DNA from: Spirochaetota bacterium
Lineage (GTDB): Bacteria; Spirochaetota; UBA12135; COTS27; JAFLEE01
Reading direction: 5' to 3'
DNA: 41,494 nucleotides
Assembly: GCA_017302015.1 (NCBI GenBank)
Contig: JAFLEE010000045.1
Span: forward strand, 1 to 41,494
Every line of letters starts with the position of its first letter. Position 1 is the stretch's first letter. Position numbers and translations under genes: made by a program. Of the stretch, positions 11,375-41,392 are shown one piece after another. The notes beneath the pieces were generated by a model. The model worked only from the letters and a program-made list of their open reading frames with translations. It had not been told where the DNA came from and searched no databases.

Positions 11375-13768
11375 ATGATCACCCCCTTCCTTCCCGTGCG
11401 GGATCCCTTCGGCCGCGACCTTCCCGTGGACGACGGCAACCCCTTCCGCTTCTACCAATGGCCCGCCGCGTGGATCTGGCCCGAGGGCGCCAACCCCGAT
11501 GAACCCCTCGTCTTCGGCGCCCGCCTCGATTTCTCCCTCGCCAAACCCGAGACCGTGCGCCTCCACTTAAGCGCCGACCAGCGCTTCGAACTCTTCCTCG
11601 ACGGGAAGCGCTTCGCCCGTGGCCCCGAACTCTCGGATATCGCCCATTGGATATACGCCTCGTTCGACCTCGCGCTCACCGCGGGCGCCCACCGCCTCGG
11701 CGCACGGGTATGGTACGCCGGCGACCAGGCTGGCTACGCGCAGCAAACCGTGCGGGCGGGCTTCCTTTGCGCCGGTGAAGGCACTGGCGGGGAACGTTTC
11801 CACACCGGCATGGCCCCCTGGAGCGTGAAGCGCCTCGATGGGTACTCCCTGACCCGCCGCAAGCAGATCTGGCTCGCCCCACCGCGCCAGGAAGTCGATC
11901 TCGCGCGGGTGGAAGAAGCTTGGTTGGAGGGCGACGGGGGATGGGAAGCGCCGAAGGTCTCCGCCACCGCCCGCACCGAGGGGGGCACCGACACCACCCC
12001 GGTCTGGGTCGTCCACCCCGCCCTCCTCCCGCCCCAACGGGAGACCCCGGTCGCCTGGGCCTCCGTGCGCCATGCGGGGCCCCTCGAAGAGGGCCTCCCG
12101 AGGGTCTTCCGTGCGTCGAGCGACTCCCCCGAATGGAAGCGCCAGGCCGAGGCGTGGATCACGGGCAAGGCGAGTCTGACGCTCCCGCCCGGGGCGAAGA
12201 TCCGCATCCTCCTCGATACGGGCGAGTACCGTTGCGTTTGGCCGAGGATCGAGGCCAGCGGAGGCGAGGGGGCCCGCCTCGCGCTCGAGTGGGCGGAGTC
12301 GCTCTATGTCCACGACCCCAACGACCCCGCGTCCCTCGGAGGCTACGGCCAGGCGGACAAAGCCCATCGGGGCGAGACCGAGGGGAAGTACTTCCGCGGC
12401 GAAGGCGACGGGTGGACCTTCGACGGGCGGCCCCACGTCCTGGAATCCCATGCCTGGCACGCCGGCCGCTACGCGCTCTTCACCCTGCACGGGGGGCGCA
12501 CCCCGCTCGTCCTCGGCGCCCCGACCCTGACGCAGACGGGCTACCCCATGGATCTCGAGAGCCGCTTCGCCTCCAGCGACCCGCGCCTCGACGGGAGCAT
12601 CCCCATCCTCTGGAATGCCCTGCGGTCCTGCAGCCATGAGACCTATATGGACTGCCCGTACTACGAACGGATGATGTACGTGGGGGATACCCGCCTCGAG
12701 GCCCTCGTCACCTACGCCGCGACGCGCGACGCCCGGCTTCCGCGCAAGGCCCTCGCGCTCTTCGACTGGTCGCGCGCCGCGACGGGCCTCACCGCTTCGC
12801 GCTATCCCACCCGCTTCCGCCAGACCATCCCGCCCTTTTCCCTGTGGTGGGTCGCCATGGTCAAGGATTACGCCTGGTGGCGCGACGAGGCGGCGGTGGC
12901 GAGGGGATTCCTCCCCGGCACCCGGGCCGTGCTCGACTATTTCCTCGCGCGCCTCGACGGGGAAGGGCTACCCATGATTCCCCCGGGATGGAACTTCCAC
13001 GATTGGGTGCCCGGCTGGCCCGCCGGCATGATGCCCGCGGGCCGCGAGCGGAGCCTCCTCGGTTGGCACCTCCTCTACGCCCTCGGCCTCGCCGCCGAAT
13101 TGGAGGGCGCCCTGGGGGAGGCCGAGTTCGCCGAGCGCTACCGACGCCACCGAGGCCGCCTCTTCTTGGCTTTGGACCGCCGGTTCTGGTCCCCCGACCG
13201 GGGCCTCTTCGCCGACGACGAAGGGCTGACTTCCTACAGCGAACACGCCCAATCCCTGGCGATCCTTTCGGGGATGCTCGACCCGTCCCGCGCCGAGCAG
13301 GTCGCAGAAGGCCTCGATGCGGCGAAAGACCTCATACCCGCCACCATCTATTACAGCCATTACACCTTCGAGGCCCTCGCCCAGGCCGGCCGGGGAGACC
13401 GCATCCTCCCGCGCCTCGACCTCTGGCGCAACCTGAACGGCCAGGGCTTCACCACCACCCCGGAGATGCCCGAACCCACCCGCAGCGATTGCCACGCCTG
13501 GGGCGCCCACCCGCTCTACCACTTCTTCGCGAGCCTCCTCGGCATCCGCCCCGCCGCGCCCTCCTTCGCGCGCATCCGCATCGAACCCCGCCTGGGGACC
13601 CTGGAGCACGCCGAGGGCACGATGGTGCACCCGCTGGGTGAGGTCCACGTCCGGGCGAAAAGGGAGGGGACCGAAATCCACGGCCTCGTGAAGATTCCCG
13701 CGGGAACCCTCGGGATCCTCGCGGTCAACGGGGAAGAACTCGAGTTCGAGGGGGAGTGCGGGTTCTGA
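11375..13768 (+). CDS. GH78 alpha-L-rhamnosidase-like glycoside hydrolase
   Basis: A 797-residue protein laid out as GH78: N-terminal beta-sandwich domains (about 1-400, including a jelly-roll resembling Bac_rhamnosid_N), an (alpha/alpha)6 barrel (about 410-700) and a C-terminal beta-sandwich. The family's catalytic stretch appears as YMDCPYYERMMYVGD near residue 425, matching the acidic residues of the canonical D-E-R-x-G-W-x-G-D block (Asp, Glu and the Gly-Asp). Near the barrel end is the usual SDCHAWGAHPLYHF segment. Expected reaction: inverting release of terminal alpha-L-rhamnose from rhamnogalacturonan or glycosides. No signal peptide is visible, so it probably acts on imported oligosaccharides in the cytoplasm. 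GGAGG lies seven bases before the ATG. Substrate specificity is inferred; some GH78 relatives act on other sugars. Confidence 0.85.
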   Translation: MITPFLPVRDPFGRDLPVDDGNPFRFYQWPAAWIWPEGANPDEPLVFGARLDFSLAKPETVRLHLSADQRFELFLDGKRFARGPELSDIAHWIYASFDLALTAGAHRLGARVWYAGDQAGYAQQTVRAGFLCAGEGTGGERFHTGMAPWSVKRLDGYSLTRRKQIWLAPPRQEVDLARVEEAWLEGDGGWEAPKVSATARTEGGTDTTPVWVVHPALLPPQRETPVAWASVRHAGPLEEGLPRVFRASSDSPEWKRQAEAWITGKASLTLPPGAKIRILLDTGEYRCVWPRIEASGGEGARLALEWAESLYVHDPNDPASLGGYGQADKAHRGETEGKYFRGEGDGWTFDGRPHVLESHAWHAGRYALFTLHGGRTPLVLGAPTLTQTGYPMDLESRFASSDPRLDGSIPILWNALRSCSHETYMDCPYYERMMYVGDTRLEALVTYAATRDARLPRKALALFDWSRAATGLTASRYPTRFRQTIPPFSLWWVAMVKDYAWWRDEAAVARGFLPGTRAVLDYFLARLDGEGLPMIPPGWNFHDWVPGWPAGMMPAGRERSLLGWHLLYALGLAAELEGALGEAEFAERYRRHRGRLFLALDRRFWSPDRGLFADDEGLTSYSEHAQSLAILSGMLDPSRAEQVAEGLDAAKDLIPATIYYSHYTFEALAQAGRGDRILPRLDLWRNLNGQGFTTTPEMPEPTRSDCHAWGAHPLYHFFASLLGIRPAAPSFARIRIEPRLGTLEHAEGTMVHPLGEVHVRAKREGTEIHGLVKIPAGTLGILAVNGEELEFEGECGF

Positions 13769-28667: not shown

Positions 28668-28701
28668 CCCATGGAAAAGGAGGGATTTCCATGTAAAATC
28701 C
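28668..28701. promoter_or_regulatory. Duplicated 34 bp regulatory sequence, copy 1 (isomerase operon)
   Basis: 34 bases identical to 31263-31296. It contains the inverted repeat CATGGAAA (28670-28677) and TTTCCATG (28686-28693) with an 8 bp spacer. A related TGGAAAT occurs again just to the right (28704-28710). It lies 32 bases upstream of the isomerase start and is the best candidate for the binding site of the PocR-AraC regulator encoded 2.6 kb away. Confidence 0.65.
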
Positions 28702-28842: not shown

Positions 28843-31056
28843 TCAATAGTACCACCCGCCGCCCTCCCCGAGTTTCACCTCGACCGGCGGCCCCTTATAA
28901 GCGTTCGAGCCGTTCCACCATATAGTGACCGTATTGGTGAACCCCAGCCCGTTCTCGCCCAGGCGGACCGTCAGACCGCTGGCGCCCTGGCTCGTCAACC
29001 GAACCGACTCGGGCTCGAGGGCGCAGTCGAAACGGGAGATCGCGGGACCCTTCAGATCGCGTCGCATCCAAATACCGCGCGTACCGCGGAATGAGTCGCA
29101 CTCCGTGGAGTAACTGAAGCGCTCCGGGAGCTTGCGCACATGGGAGAGGAGCCATTGGGTATTGCTGTAGATCCAGTCGCCCGACGGGTATTCGTGCCCC
29201 CATCCGGGCACGAGGACGAGCTCCCCCCGATTGCCGTAGCGGCCCAATTCTTCGAGCATATTCGTCGCGTGGGTGGCGCGCACGACCGTATCCTTCTCCC
29301 CCTGCCAAATGCGCACGGGCAGGTTCGAAGCGTTCATCCCCAGACCGACGCCCAGGGGCGTATACCAGGTACCCCCGGCGATCGGGCAGACGGCGGCCCA
29401 CAGGTGGGGCATGCGCAGGGCAAAGTTCCACGCGGCCCCGCCCCCCATGGAATGCCCGGTCAGGTAGATGCGGTTGGAATCGACCTTGAACTCGCGCAGC
29501 ACCTCTTCGAGGGCCGCGAAGACGTCCATTTTGCCCCAATCGTCGTAGCCGTTATTGCCGCGGCCCCAGGGCTCGAGGCGGTAATGGGCCTTCTCGTCCG
29601 GGGACCAGTTCGTCTCGTTCGTACGCGTCTGCAAGCGCATGGCCGGGTAGAACAACACATGGGAGGGCCCCGCCCCGTGGAGGTCGACAATGAGAGGGTA
29701 GGCCCGGTTGGAGTCCCAGGCCTTCGGCAGGCTGAACGTCGCGAATTGCAGGGTGGAATCGGGCCACGCCTCGCGAACGAAGAGCAGGCTGCGCCCGTCC
29801 ACCGCGAAGGACTTCCATTGCCCCATCTCGGCGTTGAGCCCGTCGAGGATGGTTTGGGCGTCGCGCACCACGCCGTCGGGGGCGCCGGGCACCCGGTCGA
29901 CGAGGAATAGCGCCCGGTTCCATTCCGCGCCCACGAGCGCCTGGATCGACCGCAGGTGGCGCGTGAAGAGCGGGTGGGGCGACTTCTCGAGGAGGGCTTC
30001 GATGCGCCGCTCCAGGGCGGCGATCACCCCCGCCGTGAACACGAGTTTCGACGCGCAGATCACGGGGGCCTTCTTCTGGGAATCGAGGAGTCGGCACTCG
30101 AACGGGAGGGCCGCCGCGGGCAGGACCCCCGGGGTGGCGCGCACCAAGAAGCGCCGCACGCCCTTTCCGGGGGCTTTCGCGGGCGCCCAGGTTTTCTGCA
30201 GGTTCCCGAGGCGCGCCTGGAGTTGGAACGCATCGACTCCCCAGGCCACCACGGCGATTTCGCCGAAATCCGTCGGGCGCCACAGCGTCGTGCGCGTCGC
30301 CGTCGCGATCCGCAGGGCCCCGGGCGGGGCGCCGGGGGCAAGACGCTCGAAGAGCGAAGGCCGGGGAGCTCCATCCGCGCCGCGCCCCCAATAGATGCGC
30401 CGCTGCTTTTCATTCGGGGTGGAATCGTTCACCTGCACGCAGAGGCCGATGAGGGGCGCGAAGCCCGGCAGCGACGCGAACTCGCCCCAAGGGAACGCCA
30501 GGGAGTAGGTCGTCGTTTTCGCGCGCTCGTCGCGGACGATGGCGCAGGGGTAATGGCGTTTGCCCTCGCGCAGCCGCCCGGTGCCGTACTGGCCCTGGTA
30601 ATGGGCCCAGAGTTCGGGTCCGCGCGCTGTGAGGGCGGCGGTGATGGAGGCGACGGTGGGGCTGACGGAGCTTTGCACTTTTTCCGAAGCCGCGCCGCTC
30701 GCGTCGATTCCGATCTGGAGGCAGTCCCCATCCCAAATATCGGACTTCTCCTTGGCATTGAAATGCGCCTGGTCGCGCACTTCGACCTTGAGGAGGATGG
30801 CCTGCTCCGAGACCGCCAACCACCCGCGCGCCGAAACCTTGGGATCCCCTTCGATTTTGAAGGAGGGTTCGCCGTTCGTCCAGGTGGGGTCATTCGTCGC
30901 GACCCAGCGCAGCTTCGGGGCCTGGGCGGGAGCCTCGGCGCCCTCGAGTTCGATGAACTCGATGCGCGGAGCGCGGGATTTTTCCTGGGGCGCGCCGTGG
31001 AGCATGGGCACCGCGATCAGAATGAAGAGGCCGGGGCGAAAATTCCAATGGAGCAT
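28843..31056 (-). CDS. Exported esterase with N-terminal CBM9-like domain
   Basis: A 737-residue protein with a signal peptide (to about residue 22, A-P-Q). Residues 45-230 resemble a CBM9-like carbohydrate-binding domain (NDPTWTNGEP…, EVRDQAHFNA, DIWDGDCLQIGID, YSLAFPWGEF). A middle domain follows, then an alpha/beta hydrolase of the PHB-depolymerase/CE1-like type at about 440-660. Its catalytic Ser is S536 in YLTGHSMGGGAAW, Asp probably in WQGEKDTVV, and His in PGWGHEYPSGD. The final 80 residues form a beta-rich tail. Expected role: removal of acyl or feruloyl groups from plant polysaccharide outside the cell. AAGGA precedes the start. A candidate promoter and an operator-like palindrome lie just upstream (31091-31124). 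Divergent from the PocR-AraC regulator, so joint control is possible. Confidence 0.85.
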   Translation of the reverse strand: MLHWNFRPGLFILIAVPMLHGAPQEKSRAPRIEFIELEGAEAPAQAPKLRWVATNDPTWTNGEPSFKIEGDPKVSARGWLAVSEQAILLKVEVRDQAHFNAKEKSDIWDGDCLQIGIDASGAASEKVQSSVSPTVASITAALTARGPELWAHYQGQYGTGRLREGKRHYPCAIVRDERAKTTTYSLAFPWGEFASLPGFAPLIGLCVQVNDSTPNEKQRRIYWGRGADGAPRPSLFERLAPGAPPGALRIATATRTTLWRPTDFGEIAVVAWGVDAFQLQARLGNLQKTWAPAKAPGKGVRRFLVRATPGVLPAAALPFECRLLDSQKKAPVICASKLVFTAGVIAALERRIEALLEKSPHPLFTRHLRSIQALVGAEWNRALFLVDRVPGAPDGVVRDAQTILDGLNAEMGQWKSFAVDGRSLLFVREAWPDSTLQFATFSLPKAWDSNRAYPLIVDLHGAGPSHVLFYPAMRLQTRTNETNWSPDEKAHYRLEPWGRGNNGYDDWGKMDVFAALEEVLREFKVDSNRIYLTGHSMGGGAAWNFALRMPHLWAAVCPIAGGTWYTPLGVGLGMNASNLPVRIWQGEKDTVVRATHATNMLEELGRYGNRGELVLVPGWGHEYPSGDWIYSNTQWLLSHVRKLPERFSYSTECDSFRGTRGIWMRRDLKGPAISRFDCALEPESVRLTSQGASGLTVRLGENGLGFTNTVTIWWNGSNAYKGPPVEVKLGEGGGWYY

Positions 31057-31262: not shown

Positions 31263-31296
31263 CCCATGGAAAAGGAGGGATTTCCATGTAAAATCC
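31263..31296. promoter_or_regulatory. Duplicated 34 bp regulatory sequence, copy 2 (PocR-AraC gene)
   Basis: Identical to 28668-28701, with the same CATGGAAA/TTTCCATG inverted repeat. Here it overlaps the translation start of the regulator gene (ATG at 31266), so binding or RNA folding there could autoregulate the gene. The first codons of the protein are therefore written in the repeat. Confidence 0.6.
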
Positions 31297-32117: not shown

Positions 32118-33128
32118 TCACCCCGCGGAAGCCTGCCCCACCGACGCCCGCTCCACGATGCGCCAGGGGAGTTTCACTTCCTCCGCCCCGCCGTCGCCCT
32201 CCATGGCGCGGCGCAGGAGTTCGAACATACGCGCGCCCAGGTCCCGGGCGGATTGGTCCACCGTGGTCAAGGGAACGGCGAGGGCGTGGCCGAAGGAGAG
32301 GTTTCCGAACCCCATCACCGAGACATGGCCGGGCACCGCGAGCCCACGCTCCAGGCACTCGAGGATCACTCCCGATGCCACCAAGTCGTTCTGGCAGAGG
32401 ATCGCGAGGGGACCCGCCTTCTGGCCGAGAAGCGTGGCGACGGCGAGGCGACCGGTCTCTTCGGTGAGGGGCCCTCGGATTTCCTTCCCCGCGGGGAGCG
32501 CGGCTGCGCGCAGGGCGCCCTGGAAGCCCTTAAGCCGCTTGAGGGCGCTGGTGGATTCGGGATTGGCCCCCACGAAGGCGAGGCGCCGATGGCCCTTGCC
32601 GAGGAGGTACTTCGTGGCGCCCGCCGAGGCGGCTTCGTCGTCGATGCCGATCCACGGGTAGGCCTTGGGGCCGGCGCCCGGTTCGAGGGCATCGTCGAAG
32701 AGCACCACGGGTTTGGTGAAGAAGCCCAATTCTTCCCGGGCGGCGAGGCCCAAGGTCTTGGCCACGGGCACCAGGCAGAGGCCGTCGACCTGGTAGCGCC
32801 CGAAGAGCGCCACGGCCTCGGCGAGTTTGGGATCGCGGTGATCGTGCTTGGCGATGAGGATATTGTATTTTTCCAGGCTCGCGGCGGTCTCGAACCCGTC
32901 GATCACCTCAGGAAAAAAACTGGTGGCGAGTTCGGGGACCAGGACCCCGATGAGCCGGCTCTTCTTGGTGACGATGGCCTGGGCGAGAAAATTGGGCCGG
33001 TAGCCCAGTTCGGCCGCGAGGGCCTTCACCCGGACCTTCGTCGCCGGCGGGATATCTGGAAAATCCTTCAGCGCGCGGCGCACCGCGCTGACGGAAAGGT
33101 TGGCTCGGCGGGCGATTTCCTTGATCAA
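32118..33128 (-). CDS. LacI-family transcription regulator
   Basis: A 336-residue regulator with an N-terminal LacI HTH (IKEIARRANLSVSAVRRALK at 2-21), a hinge helix (YRPNFLAQAI near 45-54, with Ile where LacI has the minor-groove Leu) and a periplasmic-binding-protein-like sensor (IGVLVPELATSFFPEVIDG, LFDDALEPG, ILCQNDLVASGVILEC, VMGFGNLSFGHA, PLTTVDQSARDLG). The start is a TTG at 33128, preceded by CAGGA with good spacing; upstream in-frame codons do not fit the family. It follows the DUF4838 and SGNH genes on the same strand with gaps of 133 and 136 bp, so it may be the last gene of their operon and feed back on the promoter at 36924-36952. The operator proposed for it has the central CG typical of LacI-family sites. 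Confidence 0.93.
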   Translation of the reverse strand: MIKEIARRANLSVSAVRRALKDFPDIPPATKVRVKALAAELGYRPNFLAQAIVTKKSRLIGVLVPELATSFFPEVIDGFETAASLEKYNILIAKHDHRDPKLAEAVALFGRYQVDGLCLVPVAKTLGLAAREELGFFTKPVVLFDDALEPGAGPKAYPWIGIDDEAASAGATKYLLGKGHRRLAFVGANPESTSALKRLKGFQGALRAAALPAGKEIRGPLTEETGRLAVATLLGQKAGPLAILCQNDLVASGVILECLERGLAVPGHVSVMGFGNLSFGHALAVPLTTVDQSARDLGARMFELLRRAMEGDGGAEEVKLPWRIVERASVGQASAG

Positions 33129-33261: not shown

Positions 33262-35577
33262 TCACTCCCGCACGAGCATAAGTCGATCGACGCGGATTTC
33301 TTTCGCGTTCTCGGCGTTCTTGGCGGGGGCCACCCAGATGTATTTGGCCCCGGGAACCACGGTGCCGATGGCATAGAGGTGATAGCCCTCGCCGACGACC
33401 TGGGGCAGCGCGATTTCGATGGACGCGGGGTTCTTCTTTTCCACCAGGTCGTAGACGCCCGCCGTGAACGCGAGTCCCTGATCCCCCTGCTTGACCACCT
33501 TGACCGCGGCGTAGACTTTCCATCGCCCCGAGGCGCCGGGCTTGGCCGGCATGGTGGGCAGGTCCACCTGAACCGCCCAGGCCGTGTGGCTTCCCGGCAT
33601 CGAGGCCGCGAAGCCGTCGGAGGCGCTTTCGTCCGCCACCGTGAATACCAGTTCCCCCTTTTTATACAAGCGGAACCGGTCGTCTTGGATCTCCCGCTTA
33701 TCCACGGGGGGGATCTTCTCGAATTCGGGCGCCGTCTTTCCCATGCGCCCCGGAATGCGGTAATCCTTCACCCAAGCCGATAGGGACGTGCGCGCCTCGT
33801 TGGCGAAGCGCACCCCGTTCTCGGCGCCGATGCGCACGAACGCGTCGGCGAGTTCGGCGGGTTCCGCCGGGAACGGCCAGGCTCCTCCGGCGGCTTGTTG
33901 GCGATAGGAGGTCCAATTCACCAGGAGCACGTTTAACATCGGCATGAAGGCGAGTTCGACGCGGCGGAGCAGCTCCGGATCGCGGCCGGCCAGGGTGCGG
34001 CCCTCCCGGTAGAGGGGATAGGCCTTCTCCATGAAGGAGAGGAGCAGGTGGTTCTGCTGCATCGGGTCGCCCGCGTAGACGAGGTCGAGGTAGCGGGTGA
34101 TGGCCGGGGCCGCGGGGCCGTAATACCCGGCGACGAACTCGGAAACCAAGGCGCGTTCATCCAAGGAGGGATCCCAGAGGAGTTTGGCGAAGACCCAATC
34201 CTTGAGCACGGCGAGGTCGCCCCCCGGGGTATTGAAGGTGCCCTGGTGCATCAGGCCCCGCACCTGGTTCGAGGCGAAGAGGCGGAGATTCCCCGCGCTG
34301 ACATAGAGGTTGGGGAAGATCGAATGGTAATCGGCGAAATCGGTCGTGTAGTCCCAGACGTGGAGGTTGGAGGTCCATTTCCGCCAGCCCTGCAGGTCCG
34401 CGAAGAACGCCGCGTTCGCCTTCGAATCGTAGGGCGCGAGCCAACGGCACTTGAAGGGGCAGAGGCGGATTCGCACATTGGCCCGCGGCCCCGTGAGCGC
34501 CGGGGGTTTCTGGCTGTAGAGGTAGGCCAGGGTGTCGATGGTCGCCTGGGGATACTCGGCCTCGATGGCCTTGGCCACGGCGTTGACGAAGCGCACCACG
34601 GGCCCGGCGGGGCTGCCCTCCTCCGCTTCGATGGCGCGGCAATCCGCGCACTCGCAGGCGCCCGCCCCGTCGTTCTGGGAAACGCTCACGATGGAATCGG
34701 GGGGCGCGTCGGCCAAGTAACCCTTCACTTTTCCGATCACCAAGGCCAAGAGATCGCCGTTCTTCGGGCTGAGGCAGAGTTGCCCATCGAACGATTTGTT
34801 GATCCGCTTCCCCTGGATCTCCGAGAACCACTGGGGATGCCCCGCGAAATACTCCTTCGGGGGCACGATCTGGGCGAAGGTGTGCACGAAATAGGGCCCG
34901 CGGTACTTGATGCTTCCGCCGCGGGATTCGGGGATGGGGTAGCCGTTTCCGTTTAAGCGATTCTCCACGGCGAAATTGGTGGCGAAATAACTGAGGAGTT
35001 CACGGTACTCGAAACCCGGCCGATAGCGGAGGGAGAAGGAGGGGACCGAAAGGGATGAAATTTTCGGGAGGGTCGAGGCCGATTCCGTCCACCAGCGGCA
35101 GCCCAGTTTCTCGAGGAAGAGCCCCACCGCGTAGACGGTGCCCCGGCGGGAGGACTGGGCCCCCGTGAGGAGGAGCGCCCCGCCTTCGGTGCGCATCACC
35201 ACGCCGTCATGGCCGAGGGCGGAGAGGTCGAGGGGAAGCGACGGGCTCAGGCGTTTGGCCGCGGCGGGTCCGACGGCGATGATCCCCCGCGTTCCGCTGG
35301 GCGGGGCCTCCACCACCGGGAACGCCGCCCCGGTGATATCCCCGAGCCGGGCGGCGAGGAAAGCCGCCGCTCCCTTTTCCGCGGCGGTGGCCCCCGCGTC
35401 CACATGGATGGCATAGGTCGTGGCGCCCTTATCGGCGAGGAGTAGCGTGACCGTGGGCGAGCCGCCCTTCTCGGTCGGGAACCCCGACAAGGGCGAGGCC
35501 GGCGTGGCCGCCGCGGCGAGCATTCCGAGGAGGGCGAGCGCGGCCCATGAAAGGCGGGGAATCGTGAATAGGCTCAT
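33262..35577 (-). CDS. Exported DUF4838 protein (alpha-glucuronidase-superfamily-like)
   Basis: A 771-residue protein with a signal peptide (to about residue 26). Residues 45-190 resemble the N-terminal domain found in GH67 and GH20 enzymes (glyco_hydro_67N-like: AAAFLAARLGDITG, RGIIAVG, GGALLLTGAQSSRRGTVYAVGLFLEKLGCRWWT). Residues 200-560 match DUF4838, with SVSQNDGAGACECADCRAIE near 300 and the YHSIFPNLYVSAGNLRLFA stretch near 430. The C-terminal 150 residues form a beta-sandwich. DUF4838 proteins are presumed glycosidases, but the reaction is not established. GGAG precedes the ATG. Located between the SGNH hydrolase gene (136 bp upstream) and lacI, it is likely part of the LacI-controlled unit. 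The cysteine quartet C-E-C-A-D-C suggests a structural disulfide or metal site. Confidence 0.85.
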   Translation of the reverse strand: MSLFTIPRLSWAALALLGMLAAAATPASPLSGFPTEKGGSPTVTLLLADKGATTYAIHVDAGATAAEKGAAAFLAARLGDITGAAFPVVEAPPSGTRGIIAVGPAAAKRLSPSLPLDLSALGHDGVVMRTEGGALLLTGAQSSRRGTVYAVGLFLEKLGCRWWTESASTLPKISSLSVPSFSLRYRPGFEYRELLSYFATNFAVENRLNGNGYPIPESRGGSIKYRGPYFVHTFAQIVPPKEYFAGHPQWFSEIQGKRINKSFDGQLCLSPKNGDLLALVIGKVKGYLADAPPDSIVSVSQNDGAGACECADCRAIEAEEGSPAGPVVRFVNAVAKAIEAEYPQATIDTLAYLYSQKPPALTGPRANVRIRLCPFKCRWLAPYDSKANAAFFADLQGWRKWTSNLHVWDYTTDFADYHSIFPNLYVSAGNLRLFASNQVRGLMHQGTFNTPGGDLAVLKDWVFAKLLWDPSLDERALVSEFVAGYYGPAAPAITRYLDLVYAGDPMQQNHLLLSFMEKAYPLYREGRTLAGRDPELLRRVELAFMPMLNVLLVNWTSYRQQAAGGAWPFPAEPAELADAFVRIGAENGVRFANEARTSLSAWVKDYRIPGRMGKTAPEFEKIPPVDKREIQDDRFRLYKKGELVFTVADESASDGFAASMPGSHTAWAVQVDLPTMPAKPGASGRWKVYAAVKVVKQGDQGLAFTAGVYDLVEKKNPASIEIALPQVVGEGYHLYAIGTVVPGAKYIWVAPAKNAENAKEIRVDRLMLVRE

Positions 35578-35713: not shown

Positions 35714-36832
35714 TCACCGCAATACCCATTTCATCCAGCACCAGAAACTCGTACCGATCTGGCGGTATCCGGCGTTATTCGGATGCACCGCGTTGTCCAC
35801 CGGGTAGCCGTCGATGGGATCGATGAAGAGTTCCGTGGGGATGAGGGTGAGTTTCTCCCCTTCCCGCCCGCCGTACTTCGCGATGAGTTTTTCCACCAAG
35901 CGGTGCTGGACGAGCTTCCATTCCCAACGATGGTAGGCGCCTTTGTAATTCGTGACGAAGGCGCCCTCCCGGGAATTCGGCGGCGTCGTGAGGCCGATGC
36001 CCAGCGTCGCGCCCGGGAGCGCGGCGCGGAAGGCCCCCACGAGGCGGTCCGCATTGGAGAGCACGCTGTCGATGCCCACATCCACCGCGGCGGGATCGCC
36101 GGTCTTCGTGCCGAGCCCGAAGCAATCGTTGATCCCCAATAGGAACGTCACGAGCTCGGGACGGGCGCCGCCGAGCGTCTGGTTGAAATAGCGGTCGAGG
36201 TCGAGATTCGTCTTCCCCAGCTCGACGAAGAGGAAGGGGCTCGTGCGTTCGCGGTAAGTGGCCCCCGGTTTTTCCACCACCTGGCTCAGGAAGGATCTCC
36301 AAGTCCAGCCGCCGTAGCCCTCGTGGGCGATGGGCGCCTTCGCCGCACCGGAGGTGCCGAGCATGGTGAGGATGGGATTCCCCGGAGAGCCCATGAGCCG
36401 GTGGATTTCCGTGGGATAGAGGCTGGCGCCAGTGAGGCTATCCCCCACGATGAGGAGTTTGAGCGCCTTCCCCGCCCCCGCATCCGCCGGCGCCACCCGC
36501 AGTATCGTGGATGCTTTTCCGAGTTCGATCCCGTTCCCATCGCGAACGGTGATGGTGAGGGGATGCTCGCCCGCGTCCCCCGCGGCGGGGGTGAGGGAAA
36601 AACGCCGCGCTTCGTGGGTTCCCTTCACGTCGCACACGACGGTGAAACGGAGAGACTCAGGCGTTTGGGAGAGAACGAGATTGTCGAAGTAGAGGGCGGT
36701 GGACGTTCCGCAAACGGCATACACGTAGGGAGGAAGCGTGAGGCGAACCGAGTCGGGGAGCGCAAAGAGGGCGCTGACCGGCACCCACGCCGCAAGCATC
36801 CAAATAACGCACTTGCTCAGAAGTCGATTCAT
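35714..36832 (-). CDS. Exported SGNH/GDSL hydrolase with N-terminal beta-sandwich
   Basis: A 372-residue protein with a signal peptide (to about residue 24, F-A-L-P). Residues 28-118 form a beta-sandwich, and the hydrolase follows. SGNH blocks are complete: nucleophile S132 in LLIVGDSLTG, the oxyanion Gly in GYGGWTW, G-x-N-D in TFLLGINDCFG, and the Asp-His pair in DNAVHPNNAGY near residue 348. Expected role: deacylation of a carbohydrate, as in rhamnogalacturonan acetylesterases. The start at 36832 begins the signal peptide and has AAAGGG close by; an ATG at 36865 would add 11 unlikely residues. First gene after the strong promoter and operator at 36906-36952, followed by the DUF4838 gene and lacI on the same strand. 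Confidence 0.85.
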   Translation of the reverse strand: MNRLLSKCVIWMLAAWVPVSALFALPDSVRLTLPPYVYAVCGTSTALYFDNLVLSQTPESLRFTVVCDVKGTHEARRFSLTPAAGDAGEHPLTITVRDGNGIELGKASTILRVAPADAGAGKALKLLIVGDSLTGASLYPTEIHRLMGSPGNPILTMLGTSGAAKAPIAHEGYGGWTWRSFLSQVVEKPGATYRERTSPFLFVELGKTNLDLDRYFNQTLGGARPELVTFLLGINDCFGLGTKTGDPAAVDVGIDSVLSNADRLVGAFRAALPGATLGIGLTTPPNSREGAFVTNYKGAYHRWEWKLVQHRLVEKLIAKYGGREGEKLTLIPTELFIDPIDGYPVDNAVHPNNAGYRQIGTSFWCWMKWVLR

Positions 36833-36905
36833 CCCTTTGGCTCCCTCGAATTGACTCACCAGCATGTGATGCTCCGTTTTCCGCGTAGATTAAGAAATGA
36901 CCATT

Positions 36906-36923
36906 TTACTATAGCGATGTAGT
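36906..36923 (-). promoter_or_regulatory. Operator copy 1 (SGNH unit)
   Basis: TTACTATAGCGATGTAGT on the plus strand, identical over 18 bases to 41345-41362. Its core ACTATAGCGATGTAGT is an imperfect palindrome (12 of 16 positions symmetric) centred on CG. It begins directly after the -10 of the promoter, covering the expected start of transcription, as a repressor site would. Confidence 0.8.
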
Positions 36924-36952
36924 ATTGTATCTATTGAGCGAGCACCTGTCAA
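36924..36952 (-). promoter_or_regulatory. Near-consensus sigma70 promoter of the SGNH unit
   Basis: On the minus strand TTGACA (36947-36952), exactly 17 bp, TACAAT (36924-36929). Same architecture as the promoter at 41364-41392. Confidence 0.85.
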
Positions 36953-37207
36953 TCAAACACGTCCAACTCGCCAATGGCCCGTGGCGGGAAGTGCATGGAA
37001 CCGGGCCATATGAGGCGATAGGCAACCCGCGTTCTGAATCCGTCCATCGCCCTGTGCTCAAACGCGAGGGGGGCTCGCACCGATTCCATTTGTTGAAATA
37101 AGGCCCTTAGCCAGCCACGTAGAGGTTGACAAGGCATACCATTTTACCAATAACACCGACATCGCGGGTTGAATCGAACTCCCATCCCTCCGTCTATTTC
37201 TCCCCCC

Positions 37208-39196
37208 TCATTCCTCGAACACCACCACCGCCCACCCCTCCAGCGCGGGCACCGTGACGCGGGCATAGGCGCCGTCGACCGCCACGGGCAATTCATCCCC
37301 TATGGGGAGTAGGCGCGCCTTACGCACCCGCCGCCCATCCATGCGCAGGCGGACCTCGACGTCGCGCGTCTCGATGGCTTCTTCAATCATGTCGATGCTC
37401 GCGCCCCGGCGTTCGGCGACGTAATTCATGAGCCAGACCATACGGCGACCCGCCTGGCTCGTGACGGCGCTGCGCCCGAAGGAGGGAAAATGGCCCAAGC
37501 GCAGGAGCGGCTGCGGATGGAGCCGTTCGAGTAATCGGGCCACGATCTGTTTCAGCGGCACGGGGGCCGCCTGGTGGTAGGCGGTGAAGAAGGGATGGGA
37601 CAGGTAGGCCACCTTGCCTCTTTGGACGATGACGGGGCGCTGGGTGAGGCGATCGGGCGCCAGATAGAGATGGTGGTGTTCCCCATCCCAATGCCGCGGG
37701 AAGAAGGTCGTGATGGAATGGGCGAGCACTTCGCTCCCCGCAGCGGCTTCCACGATCGCACCGCGCACGTAGGCATTGAGGGGCATATCGGGTAGGCCCT
37801 CGGAGAGAGGCTTCTCTACCCTGAAATAGCCGTTGTCGCGGGGCGGCACGAAACCGTCTTCCCGTTTGGGCTCGAATTGCGAGTCGGCAACCGGGTCTTC
37901 CCCCGCGTAGGTCACCCCCCACTCCTGGAAGACGAAGTTTTTTTTATCGGCGTCCAAGCCCGCCCATGCGCTGGCGAGGATCGCGCCGCCCCGACCTAAG
38001 TGGGCGCGGATCCTTTCGGCGAGGGGGCCGTCCAGAACGAGTTCGTCCGGCAGGATGAGGAGCGTATAGTTTCCCCACTGGGAAGCGGACGTCACCACGT
38101 CGAAGGACACCTGAAGTTCGGCGAGCATGCGGGTCGCCCCGAGCACCGCGGGTCCGAAAGGGGGCGGGGGCACGACCAGGGCCACATCCGCTTGGGGCCG
38201 GGCCCCTTCGACCCAGGCGTCGATGGACTGGAGTTTCCGGTAGATCGGGCGGATGAGGTCGAACACCGCGTCGTTGCGCTCCCCGCGGGGGTGCCAATGG
38301 TCTCCCACCGACGGGCGCATGCCTTGGGAGAGGCCCTGCACGCAATCGAACTCGAGGCTGGGCGCCGTGCGTAGGCCCCCGAAATCGCCCCAGGCGCGGT
38401 GGAAGCGACCGGTCATGTTGATGGCGGGCTTCCCGAGGGTGCGGAGATAGCGCGCGTAGGCGGGCAGTAACTCGTAGCCCCAACCGCCCGTGGGCAGGCA
38501 CTCGAACTCGTTGTAATTTCCGAGGGAGAGTTGGTCCTCGAAATTCACCCCGTTGAAATACAGGAGCAGGTCGGGCTTGGCGGCGAGGGCCGTCTCGCGC
38601 AGGCGCCGCGCCAGGCGCAATTGGGAAGTATGGGCGAAGGCCTTGCGCTCCGTCTCGTCCGCCCAGTCGATGCCGAGGCGCTTCATCTCCTGGACGCATT
38701 CCACCCCGACGCATTCCTGGACCGTGAAGCAATCGAAGAAGAATCCCGCGATGGGGTAGCGGGAGGCGACCTCCTCCACCATGGCGAGCAGGTTCTCGGC
38801 GTAGCCGGTGTTGTAGCACATGCCGCGCATGAAATGGTCCATGCGGTTGGGCTTCATGACCTGGCCTTCCGGCGTCACGACGGTCCATTCCCGGTGGCGC
38901 AGGCCCTCTTCATGGCTGAGGCCCACGTTGAAATAGGCGCCCAGGGCCACGCCGCCCTGGGCACAGGCCTCGGCCAATTTCCCCAGGAGGTCGTAGGTCA
39001 AGGAGGGATGGCGAATGCCCACTTGGGTGTCGTAATAGGCCGTACCGAGATTGCACCGGGCGTGGAAGATCACGTAATCGACCCCGCAGGATTTCCATGC
39101 GGCCACCGCGCCGTCGACGTCAAAATCTTTTCCCACATCCGGCTGGTCGGGTTGGGTGTGGAAATCGTAGAAGATGGCGTATTTGGGTTGGTGCAT
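37208..39196 (-). CDS. GHL6-type putative glycoside hydrolase with beta-galactosidase trimerisation-like domain
   Basis: A 662-residue protein without a signal peptide. Residues 1-200 match the hypothetical glycosyl hydrolase 6 (GHL6) barrel: CGVDYVIFHARCNLGTAYYD, the G-I-R-H-P stretch, LGKLAEACAQGGVALGAYFN and the acidic IAGFFFDCFTVQE. The barrel continues to about 360, then a Rossmann-like domain (about 365-480; FGPAVLGATRMLAELQVSFD, LLILPDELVLDGPLAERIRA) resembles the trimerisation domain of GH42 beta-galactosidases. The last 150 residues form beta-sandwiches. The overall layout is that of GH29/GH42-related cytoplasmic glycosidases; substrate is unknown. The start at 39196 has GGAG seven bases upstream, preferred over the ATG at 39211. 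It lies 205 bp after the creatininase-like gene on the same strand, so it may belong to that operon. Confidence 0.85.
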   Translation of the reverse strand: MHQPKYAIFYDFHTQPDQPDVGKDFDVDGAVAAWKSCGVDYVIFHARCNLGTAYYDTQVGIRHPSLTYDLLGKLAEACAQGGVALGAYFNVGLSHEEGLRHREWTVVTPEGQVMKPNRMDHFMRGMCYNTGYAENLLAMVEEVASRYPIAGFFFDCFTVQECVGVECVQEMKRLGIDWADETERKAFAHTSQLRLARRLRETALAAKPDLLLYFNGVNFEDQLSLGNYNEFECLPTGGWGYELLPAYARYLRTLGKPAINMTGRFHRAWGDFGGLRTAPSLEFDCVQGLSQGMRPSVGDHWHPRGERNDAVFDLIRPIYRKLQSIDAWVEGARPQADVALVVPPPPFGPAVLGATRMLAELQVSFDVVTSASQWGNYTLLILPDELVLDGPLAERIRAHLGRGGAILASAWAGLDADKKNFVFQEWGVTYAGEDPVADSQFEPKREDGFVPPRDNGYFRVEKPLSEGLPDMPLNAYVRGAIVEAAAGSEVLAHSITTFFPRHWDGEHHHLYLAPDRLTQRPVIVQRGKVAYLSHPFFTAYHQAAPVPLKQIVARLLERLHPQPLLRLGHFPSFGRSAVTSQAGRRMVWLMNYVAERRGASIDMIEEAIETRDVEVRLRMDGRRVRKARLLPIGDELPVAVDGAYARVTVPALEGWAVVVFEE

Positions 39197-39401
39197 GGGG
39201 ACTCCGTTCACTCGAAGAGGAGGGGGGTGGCGGACGAGCCCTCGGTCGCGAACTCATGTTCCCATCGGACTCGGGCATGGGACCCATGGTGAAGGGTTCC
39301 CACGCCCCCTCCGATTCCGCACGTTCCAGGCGCCGGTTCACCACCGCCCACGCCCACCGGAGACCGGATCCTTTTCATCGGGGCCTCCTGCGCAGCCGTT
39401 T

Positions 39402-40142
39402 TCATCCCCCCAACGTCTTCTTGAGCGAGGCCAGGATCTCGCGGCGGGCCTCCTGCCCGTAGGCCAGGCTCGCCGATGCCCCCGTCTCGCAGTACCATAA
39501 TTTCGAATCGAACTTCGCCATGTCGACCCCCTCGGGGCAGAAGGCCATCATGAGCGAGGTCTCCTGGAGGCCGGCGTGGTCGATGGGGTATTTCTTCTGG
39601 ACCTCCTCGGCCATGAGGGGGTGGACCGAGATCCAACTGAAGGGATCGGCCCCGGCCTCTCGGGAGGCGTAATAATGGCGCATCTCTTCCCGTCCCCACC
39701 AGCCTTCGCCCTTCTCCCGATCCAGGAAATCGAAGATGATCTGCCGCGCCGCGAAGCGGAACGCCAGGTCGGTGGGCATGCCGGCCTTGAAGTTCTCGCT
39801 CTGGTGGTGGACGAAGGCGTGGATGTTCCGGAACCCGTTCTTCAGGAGTTGGGTGAAGAGTTCCTTGGCGAACGGGAGGATCGACTCGGCGCGCACCGGG
39901 AGCGTGCCGCTGGCGGCCGTGGGCCCCACCGCCACGCTCGCCGCCCCGTACCAGAAGGCGGGCATGAGCACAAGATCCATCTCCTTCTCGAGGGCCTCGA
40001 AGGCCCGCACGACGAGGAGCGTATCCACCCCGTTCACGCAATGCTCCCCGTGGTACTCGAGCACGCCCAGGGGCAGGACAATGGGCCAATTCTCGTCGAT
40101 GGCCTTGCGGATCTGGTGGGGAAACATCAATTCGTAGCGCAT
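39402..40142 (-). CDS. Creatininase-family amidohydrolase
   Basis: A 246-residue protein of the creatininase superfamily, which hydrolyses cyclic amides and related C-N bonds with two metal ions. First-site ligands are conserved: Glu and His in VLEYHGEH (near residue 29) and Asp in VNGVDTLL (near 40). The second block, usually N-G-H-x-E/G-N, is FVHHQSEN here (near 111), with an altered spacing of His and Glu; a further Glu occurs in GLQETSLM. So metal binding is probable but the active site differs from true creatininase. It starts 14 bases after the creatinase-like M24 gene stop, with GGGGG before the ATG, and is likely co-transcribed. Family members act on creatinine, formamidopyrimidines, lactams and mycofactocin peptide; none is implied directly here. 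Confidence 0.85.
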   Translation of the reverse strand: MRYELMFPHQIRKAIDENWPIVLPLGVLEYHGEHCVNGVDTLLVVRAFEALEKEMDLVLMPAFWYGAASVAVGPTAASGTLPVRAESILPFAKELFTQLLKNGFRNIHAFVHHQSENFKAGMPTDLAFRFAARQIIFDFLDREKGEGWWGREEMRHYYASREAGADPFSWISVHPLMAEEVQKKYPIDHAGLQETSLMMAFCPEGVDMAKFDSKLWYCETGASASLAYGQEARREILASLKKTLGG

Positions 40143-40156
40143 GGGACCCCCGCCGC

Positions 40157-41314
40157 TTAGACGATCTCGATGAGTTCGGTGCGGAAGCGGGAGAGCATCT
40201 CGTTGCCGCCCTTCACGATGCGCACGCCGTTCTCCCAGCGCAGGCCGAAGGTCGGGGCCTGGAGGAAGGTATCGACCTGGAAGGTCATATTGGGCTGGAA
40301 CGCGTAGGCCGAGTTGGACTCCACCCAGGGCTCCTCCACCTCGATCATGCCGAGGCCGTGGGCGGGCCCGTAGAGGTAGTTCTCTTCGCAGCCCCGCGAC
40401 TTCACGAACTCGTAGAACTTGGCGGTGACGCCGCTGGCGGGTTCGCCCTCCTTCATCCACTCGTAGGTCTTGAAATGCGCCTCGAGGCCGACCTCCAGGA
40501 GTTTCTTCTGCTCCGGGGAGGCCTTGCCCATGACCACCGGGCGGCCGACGCTGGGGGAATAGCCCTCGATGCGGGCGCCGAGATTGAGCTGCACCAGGTC
40601 GCCCTTCTCGATGACCTTATGGGTGGCGCGGCCGATGGCGTGGTTGCTGTTCTTCCCCGAGAGCACGTAGACCGGGTGGGCCTCGTACTCGCCGCCGAAC
40701 TCGTAGAGGTAGCGCTGGATATGCCCGACCACCTCGGTTTCGCGCATGCCGGGCTTCATGATGCCCAAGATCTTCTCGAGCACCTTCTCGGAGGCCGCGA
40801 AGCCCGCCTTGAGGGCCGCGATCTCTTCATCGCTCTTGATGCGGCGCATGTCAGAGACGATGCCCGACTTGGCGATGGCCGCTCCGGGAAAGGCCTCCCG
40901 CAGTTTCTCCCAGATGGTCACGGGGAGGATGGACATGCCGCAGACCCCGATCTTCTTAAAGGCCCCCGCCCCGCCGAGGCCGGCGGCGATGGATTCGAAG
41001 GTATCGAGTTTCGCCCCCGGGAAGGCCGGGTCGGCGGACTCCCGGTACTCGAGGATCTGGGCGAGTTTCTTCACCTTGCTGCGGTCCTTGGCGAAGGTGA
41101 GGGTTTCGGGGCCGATGATGAGCACCGGCTCGCCCTTCTTGGGGATGAAGAGCCCCGTGGTCTCGAAGATCGGCCAATAATCGCAGAAATACCGCACGTT
41201 GGCGAAGTCGGCCTCGTTGCTGTGGACAAGGATAGCGTCGAGGCCCGCCTCGCCCACCCTTTTCTGGGCTTCAGCCATGCGCCGCTGGTATTCGCCTTCG
41301 CTGATCTTGAACAT
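40157..41314 (-). CDS. M24-family protein resembling creatinase, metal ligands lost
   Basis: A 385-residue pita-bread-fold protein. The N-terminal creatinase_N-like domain spans about 8-150 (RMAEAQKRVGEAGLDAILVH), the M24 domain 160-380. In aminopeptidase P five metal ligands (two Asp, His, two Glu) are needed; here the first two positions are Asn and Ser (VQLNLGARIEGYSPSVGR), the first Glu position is Asp (FQVDTFLQ), and only His in PAHGLGM and Glu in RWENGVRI remain. Metal-free creatinase also lacks the Asp pair and uses a His as base; H225 in KNSNHAIGRATH fits that place. A C-N hydrolase acting on an amidino or similar compound is therefore more likely than a peptidase; this is inference. 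AGGAG precedes the ATG. First gene of the unit behind the promoter-operator at 41345-41392. Confidence 0.85.
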   Translation of the reverse strand: MFKISEGEYQRRMAEAQKRVGEAGLDAILVHSNEADFANVRYFCDYWPIFETTGLFIPKKGEPVLIIGPETLTFAKDRSKVKKLAQILEYRESADPAFPGAKLDTFESIAAGLGGAGAFKKIGVCGMSILPVTIWEKLREAFPGAAIAKSGIVSDMRRIKSDEEIAALKAGFAASEKVLEKILGIMKPGMRETEVVGHIQRYLYEFGGEYEAHPVYVLSGKNSNHAIGRATHKVIEKGDLVQLNLGARIEGYSPSVGRPVVMGKASPEQKKLLEVGLEAHFKTYEWMKEGEPASGVTAKFYEFVKSRGCEENYLYGPAHGLGMIEVEEPWVESNSAYAFQPNMTFQVDTFLQAPTFGLRWENGVRIVKGGNEMLSRFRTELIEIV

Positions 41315-41344
41315 AGGGAACTCCTAAAAACCGGTGTTTTTCGC

Positions 41345-41362
41345 TTACTATAGCGATGTAGT
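41345..41362 (-). promoter_or_regulatory. Operator copy 2 (creatinase-like unit)
   Basis: The same 18 bases as 36906-36923 (TTACTATAGCGATGTAGT on the plus strand). It begins one base after the -10 of the promoter and ends 31 bases before the start codon. Confidence 0.8.
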
Positions 41363-41363
41363 G

Positions 41364-41392
41364 AGTATAGGACTAAATTTGGGGAATGTCAA
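41364..41392 (-). promoter_or_regulatory. Near-consensus sigma70 promoter of the creatinase-like unit
   Basis: On the minus strand TTGACA (41387-41392), exactly 17 bp, TATACT (41364-41369). Confidence 0.88.

What the first reader, a model, noticed from the sequence alone, without database searches (positions are those of the whole stretch)
36906..41392. Two transcription units with identical promoter-operator architecture: a local LacI regulon
Seen: an identical 18 bp sequence at 36906-36923 and 41345-41362, each placed zero or one base after the -10 of a TTGACA-17 bp-TATAAT-like promoter, in the same orientation. The flanking DNA is unrelated, so this is not a simple duplication. Known: LacI-family operators are typically palindromes with a central CG, and repressor sites often overlap the start of transcription. 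Inference: the LacI protein encoded at 32118-33128, apparently last in the first unit, binds both sites and coordinates an SGNH hydrolase, a DUF4838 protein, a creatinase-like M24 protein, a creatininase-like protein and a GHL6 glycosidase.
Basis: partly seen in the sequence, partly recalled or inferred. Interest (0 to 1): 0.72.

Follow-up and report, generated by a model that had tools for sequence, protein, structure and literature searches.

The report
LacI repressor's three-site sugar-enzyme regulon
Two neighbouring gene groups carry the same DNA switch right at their start points, a third copy sits before a related gene elsewhere in the genome, and the evidence says one sugar-sensing repressor gene in this cluster controls all three; this is a normal kind of bacterial control, unusual only in its exact DNA-recognition code.

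Summary
TTACTATAGCGATGTAGT lies at 36906-36923 and 41345-41362. Read on the minus strand it follows TTGACA-17-TACAAT by 0 nt and TTGACA-17-TATACT by 1 nt. The genome (5.4 Mb) has one further site, ACTACATCGATATAGT on contig C125. It overlaps a TTGACG-17-GATACT promoter before a GH20-like gene, so the regulon has three sites and is not purely local.

(1) A distant relative of the same phylum (G146) has an orthologous cluster: M24 77%, creatininase 62%, LacI 48%, DUF4838 53%, and the C125 GH20-like protein 58% identical. There, M24 is preceded by a promoter followed by ACTACATCGTTTCCGGTAACGATGTAGT. (2) Other genomes of the phylum carry ACTACAACGTTGTAGT. Every LacI found within 1.5 kb of one (12/12) has a helix [FV]S[AST]VSK. 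The window LacI has VSAVRR and its G146 orthologue VSTVRR. In ten such genomes, only the site-adjacent LacI (10 of 73) has the xS.VSK helix.

Remaining doubts: no binding data; 34 LacI-type genes in the genome; Arg-20 usually goes with G, not T, at NT-6. Verdict: an ordinary LacI regulon with an atypical recognition class and an uncharacterised target module.

The parts
36906..36923 (-). operator 1 (core 36908-36923; minus strand ACTACATC|GCTATAGT), directly after the -10 of P1
36924..36952 (-). promoter P1: TTGACA-17-TACAAT
35714..36865 (-). SGNH/GDSL hydrolase, probable start 36832 (signal-peptide-like N-terminus)
   Evidence: Pfam Lipase_GDSL_2
33262..35577 (-). DUF4838 protein; orthologue in the G146 cluster (53% over 533 aa)
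32118..33128 (-). LacI-family regulator, helix V-S-A-V-R-R, last gene of unit 1; the proposed repressor
41345..41362 (-). operator 2 (core 41347-41362), one base after the -10 of P2
41364..41392 (-). promoter P2: TTGACA-17-TATACT
40157..41314 (-). creatinase-like M24 protein; two metal-site Asp positions read Asn and Ser
39402..40142 (-). creatininase-family protein
   Evidence: Pfam PF02633 3.5e-27
37208..39211 (-). GHL6 / GH42M-type glycoside hydrolase, last gene of unit 2

Best explanation
A dimeric LacI-family repressor encoded at 32118-33128 binds ACTACATC|GCTATAGT-type operators that cover the region between the -10 box and the start of transcription. It blocks RNA polymerase at P1 (SGNH-DUF4838-LacI, so it regulates itself), at P2 (M24-creatininase-GHL6) and at a third promoter on contig C125 (a GH20-like 755-aa protein). 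A sugar or sugar-derived ligand released by these enzymes presumably lowers its affinity and induces all three units. Shown: the sites, promoters, gene order, conserved cluster and operator half-site in a relative, and helix-motif association. Inferred: binding, repression, ligand, and cotranscription across the 133 and 136 bp gaps.
For: Sites and promoters. Genome-wide rarity and third promoter site. LacI domains, hinge present (A at AA-51, Ile at AA-54). Orthologous cluster in G146 (M24 77%, creatininase 62%, LacI 48%, DUF4838 53%, C125 GH20-like 58%). G146 promoter TTGACT-16-TATATT followed by ACT and ACTACATCGTTTCCGGTAACGATGTAGT, shortly before the M24 start codon. Helix-motif association: 12 of 12 LacI next to ACTACAACGTTGTAGT have [FV]S[AST]VSK, and all 10 xS.VSK proteins among 73 LacI in ten such genomes are the site-adjacent ones. 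The two groups are only about 25% identical to each other. Published norms fit: central-CG even palindromes, 72% autoregulation, about 90% local regulons (PMC4052901).
Against: In the published code Arg at AA-20 goes with G at NT-6 (PMC2978694), while these sites have T; the code was derived for TVSR proteins, and this one is AVRR. The G146 operator is a 28-nt inverted repeat with two ACTACATC arms, not the same 16-mer. A rival helix, ISAVSK, exists in the genome (C79). The operator is only 6/8 palindromic. The ten genomes were chosen because a LacI lay near a site, and they are not phylogenetically independent. Only one relative with the orthologous cluster was found.
Confidence: 0.88

Rival explanations
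1. Another LacI paralogue of the genome, best the C79 protein with helix ISAVSK, is the real binder of the three sites, alone or in competition.
For: 34 LacI-type genes. The C79 helix has K at AA-20 like the proteins beside ACTACAACGTTGTAGT.
Against: No ACTAYANCGNTRTAGT site lies on C79. The start of the C79 gene carries a different weak palindrome, TGGAAAACGGTTTCCC. The relative with the conserved operator has the orthologue of the window LacI in that operon.
Confidence: 0.07
2. The C125 LacI, 4.7 kb from the third site, binds at least that site.
For: Proximity.
Against: Helix QTAASL and no canonical hinge helix. Its own promoter carries a different palindrome without central CG, GTTATATTATTACTAATATCAC. 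The C125 GH20-like gene lies in the same cluster as the window LacI's orthologue in G146.
Confidence: 0.04
3. The shared sequence is not an operator: a chance repeat, a conserved initial transcribed region or a site for a non-LacI protein.
For: Some exact 18-mer repeat appears in 12% of shuffled windows.
Against: Same position at three promoters, half-site conserved in G146, LacI-type palindrome with central CG, neighbouring LacI genes in other genomes.
Confidence: 0.03

Closest known systems
LacI-family local carbohydrate regulons (RegPrecise type; Ravcheev et al. 2014, PMC4052901)
   Same: Central-CG even palindrome, operator between -10 and start codon, autoregulation, few operons, sugar-enzyme targets.
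   Different: Targets are uncharacterised (DUF4838, GHL6, creatinase-like M24, creatininase family); no ligand can be assigned.
LacI recognition code for TVSR proteins (Camas et al. 2010, PMC2978694)
   Same: AA-15/16 and AA-20 in the recognition helix would be the specificity residues; hinge residue at AA-54 with central CG.
   Different: Helix is VS-AVRR, outside the TVSR set; T instead of G at NT-6.
lac operator O1 arrangement (general knowledge)
   Same: Repressor site overlapping the transcription start.
   Different: No evidence for auxiliary operators or looping; other half-site sequence.

Membership tests
LacI-family transcription factor | N-terminal LacI HTH plus periplasmic-binding-like core | tested here: met
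   Pfam LacI 35.4 bits (cut-off 27) and Peripla_BP_3 1.1e-28; CcpA/PurR nearest solved structures
LacI-family transcription factor | hinge helix with Ala at AA-51 and hydrophobic residue at AA-54 | tested here: met
   YRPNFLAQAI: A51, I54; numbering from PMC2978694
LacI-type operator | even palindrome with central CG near the promoter | tested here: met
   ACTACATC|GCTATAGT, 6/8 pairs, at the -10 of both promoters
LacI-type operator | half-site agrees with the published code (R20 with G at NT-6) | tested here: not met
   T at NT-6; this is a frequent correlation, not a defining rule, and the code covers TVSR proteins while this helix is AVRR
LacI local regulon | operator conserved upstream of orthologous operon together with the regulator | tested here: met
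   G146 cluster, (one relative only)
LacI local regulon | protein binds the site and represses; ligand releases it | not testable with these tools
   needs gel shift, DAP-seq or reporter assays

The most novel reading that the evidence does not exclude
LacI proteins with xS[AST]V[SR][KR] helices form a recognition class outside the TVSR code that reads ACTACA-NC half-sites (T at NT-6). Here such a protein controls a conserved, uncharacterised catabolic module that pairs a creatinase-like M24 protein lacking key metal ligands with a creatininase-family enzyme and GH20-like/DUF4838 glycosidases.
Probability: 0.5. Interest if true: 0.5.

Novelty: new member of a known kind. Interest (0 to 1): 0.36.

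Why it matters
It gives three testable operator sites and a regulator for enzymes of unknown substrate, so induction tests can find the substrate. It also extends LacI recognition rules to non-TVSR helices using natural pairs from several lineages.

Tried and rejected
Other hits to the 16-mer with 2-3 mismatches, or to the palindromic core with 1 mismatch: those examined lie in coding frames. The C57 hit with 2 mismatches was judged coding by reading its frame and has no promoter at the same place. Orthologue search in the nearest genomes and in GTDB 220: best matches 28-33%, no orthologue. The ORF 39208-40089 first taken as a gene is a shadow frame; the creatininase is 39402-40142. Further G146-like orthologues in its order: none among 31 genomes. 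The window's GHL6 and SGNH proteins have no counterpart in the part of the G146 cluster that was read. Literature: no paper with ACTACAACGTTGTAGT, none with creatininase plus M24 plus LacI plus glycoside hydrolase, one passing mention of DUF4838.

Full report
OBSERVATION. The 18-mer TTACTATAGCGATGTAGT is present at 36906-36923 and 41345-41362. Transcription reads the minus strand, so the operator there is ACTACATC|GCTATAGT(AA). It directly follows TTGACA-17-TACAAT (P1) and, with one base between, TTGACA-17-TATACT (P2). A consensus scan of 32.0-41.5 kb found three promoter-like sites; these two are by far the best, 11/12 each against 9/12. Flanks are otherwise unrelated (15/60 and 7/42 identical). 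The core with up to 3 mismatches is expected 0.04 times in the window and occurs twice. An exact 18-mer repeat by itself is not extraordinary in a 41.5-kb GC-rich sequence (12 of 100 shuffles), so the argument rests on its position and its genome-wide rarity.

GENOME-WIDE. The window is the whole of contig C106 of a 5.43-Mb, 165-contig assembly. With up to 3 mismatches the core has two exact copies, one copy with a single mismatch (C125:25520-25535), and seven further listed hits with 2-3 mismatches, one of which is the C125 site read on the other strand. The palindromic core CTAYANCGNTRTAG has exactly the same three places without mismatch, and six with one mismatch, each inside a long open frame. 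The C125 site, ACTACATCGATATAGT, overlaps the -10 of TTGACG-17-GATACT and lies just before the ATG of a 755-aa protein with a weak GH20 domain-2 match. The regulon therefore has three known promoters.

TARGETS. Unit 2 (P2): creatinase-like M24 protein 40157-41314, creatininase family 39402-40142, GHL6 glycosidase 37208-39211. Unit 1 (P1): SGNH hydrolase, DUF4838 protein, LacI. The M24 protein aligns to a prolidase with Asn and Ser where the first two metal-binding Asp residues stand (ligand positions from general knowledge of the family), so it is more creatinase-like than prolidase-like.

WHICH REGULATOR. The genome has 34 LacI HTH matches, so assignment needs more than proximity. The window LacI has V15 S16 A17 V18 R19 R20 and an intact hinge (A51, I54). 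Camas et al. 2010 (PMC2978694) tie AA-15/16 to NT-5/-4, Arg-20 to G at NT-6, and hydrophobic AA-54 to the central CG. The sites here have T at NT-6, a real tension, although that code was drawn from TVSR proteins.

TEST 1, MOTIF FIRST. A search of 393 genomes of the phylum for ACTAYANCGNTRTAGT, then of 245 genomes of one family and 139 of another, found the perfect palindrome ACTACAACGTTGTAGT in 32 and 2 genomes, in several loci right after a promoter. LacI genes within 1.5 kb were found at 12 of the loci examined, and all have [FV]S[AST]VSK helices. In ten of these genomes all 73 LacI matches were censused. Exactly ten have xS.VSK, and they are the ten site-adjacent genes. The two families' proteins are only about 25% identical to each other, so the association is not plain orthology. 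Caveats: the genomes were chosen for having a LacI near a site, and they are related. The window LacI shares V/F15, S16, A17, V18 and a basic residue at 20.

TEST 2, ORTHOLOGUE FIRST. Searching the phylum with the HTH found one close relative, in genome G146 (69% in the HTH, helix VSTVRR; 48% over the whole protein). In G146 contig C22 it lies in a minus-strand cluster M24 (77%), creatininase (62%), a 472-aa protein, a 1291-aa GH123/DUF6259 protein and LacI, followed by a DUF6259 protein, two more genes, the orthologue of the C125 GH20-like protein (58%) and the DUF4838 orthologue (53%). Thus proteins from behind all three operators of our genome are brought together with this LacI in G146. 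In front of the G146 M24 gene stands TTGACT-16-TATATT, then ACT, then ACTACATCGTTTCCGGTAACGATGTAGT, an inverted repeat with two ACTACATC|G arms. The next promoter after the G146 LacI, TTGACA-17-TACTAT, is followed by GGTGTAACGTTACATT, again with T at NT-6 in both half-sites. This suggests, but does not prove, that the VRR helix reads T rather than G there.

ALTERNATIVES. The C79 LacI (ISAVSK) is the best rival by helix, but has no such site near it. The C125 LacI lacks the usual hinge, has helix QTAASL, and its own promoter carries a different palindrome without CG.

VERDICT. Mechanistically this is an ordinary LacI-family repressor that covers the start of transcription. What is less usual is the helix and operator class and the uncharacterised enzyme set. 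Binding, ligand and co-transcription remain inferred.

Noticed in passing
window 28668-28701 and 31263-31296: A 34-bp exact repeat, CCCATGGAAAAGGAGGGATTTCCATGTAAAATCC, containing an inverted repeat (CATGGAAA...TTTCCATG), stands at the start of the PocR/AraC-type gene (31266) and again 2.6 kb away, on the far side of the esterase-like gene 28843-31056. It may be another regulator's site or a duplication remnant.
   Followed up: partly
L010 (C125:18000-31837), about 12390-12640, minus strand: The C125 LacI lacks the usual hinge helix, and its promoter carries GTTATATTATTACTAATATCAC, a palindrome without central CG: a possible hinge-less LacI operator type.
   Followed up: partly
L075, L076, L078-L080, L088, L094, L100, L105, L107-L109: Genomes of two families of the phylum carry ACTACAACGTTGTAGT next to LacI genes with [FV]S[AST]VSK helices; no paper in the library mentions the sequence.
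   Followed up: yes
window 40157-41314: The M24 protein has Asn and Ser in place of the first two metal-binding Asp residues, and of the genes compared it is the most conserved in the cluster (77% to G146), suggesting a non-metal, creatinase-like enzyme.
   Followed up: partly
L214 (G146:C22:8000-27500), promoter near C22:18862-18818: A second promoter with palindrome GGTGTAACGTTACATT follows the LacI orthologue and precedes the DUF6259...GH20-like...DUF4838 genes; TGTAACGTTACA occurs once in that genome without mismatch.
   Followed up: partly
L012 (C86:42331-42468): Another LacI of the genome (helix FKTVSN) has TTTACAGCGTTGTAAT just before its HTH, also with T at NT-6.
   Followed up: no
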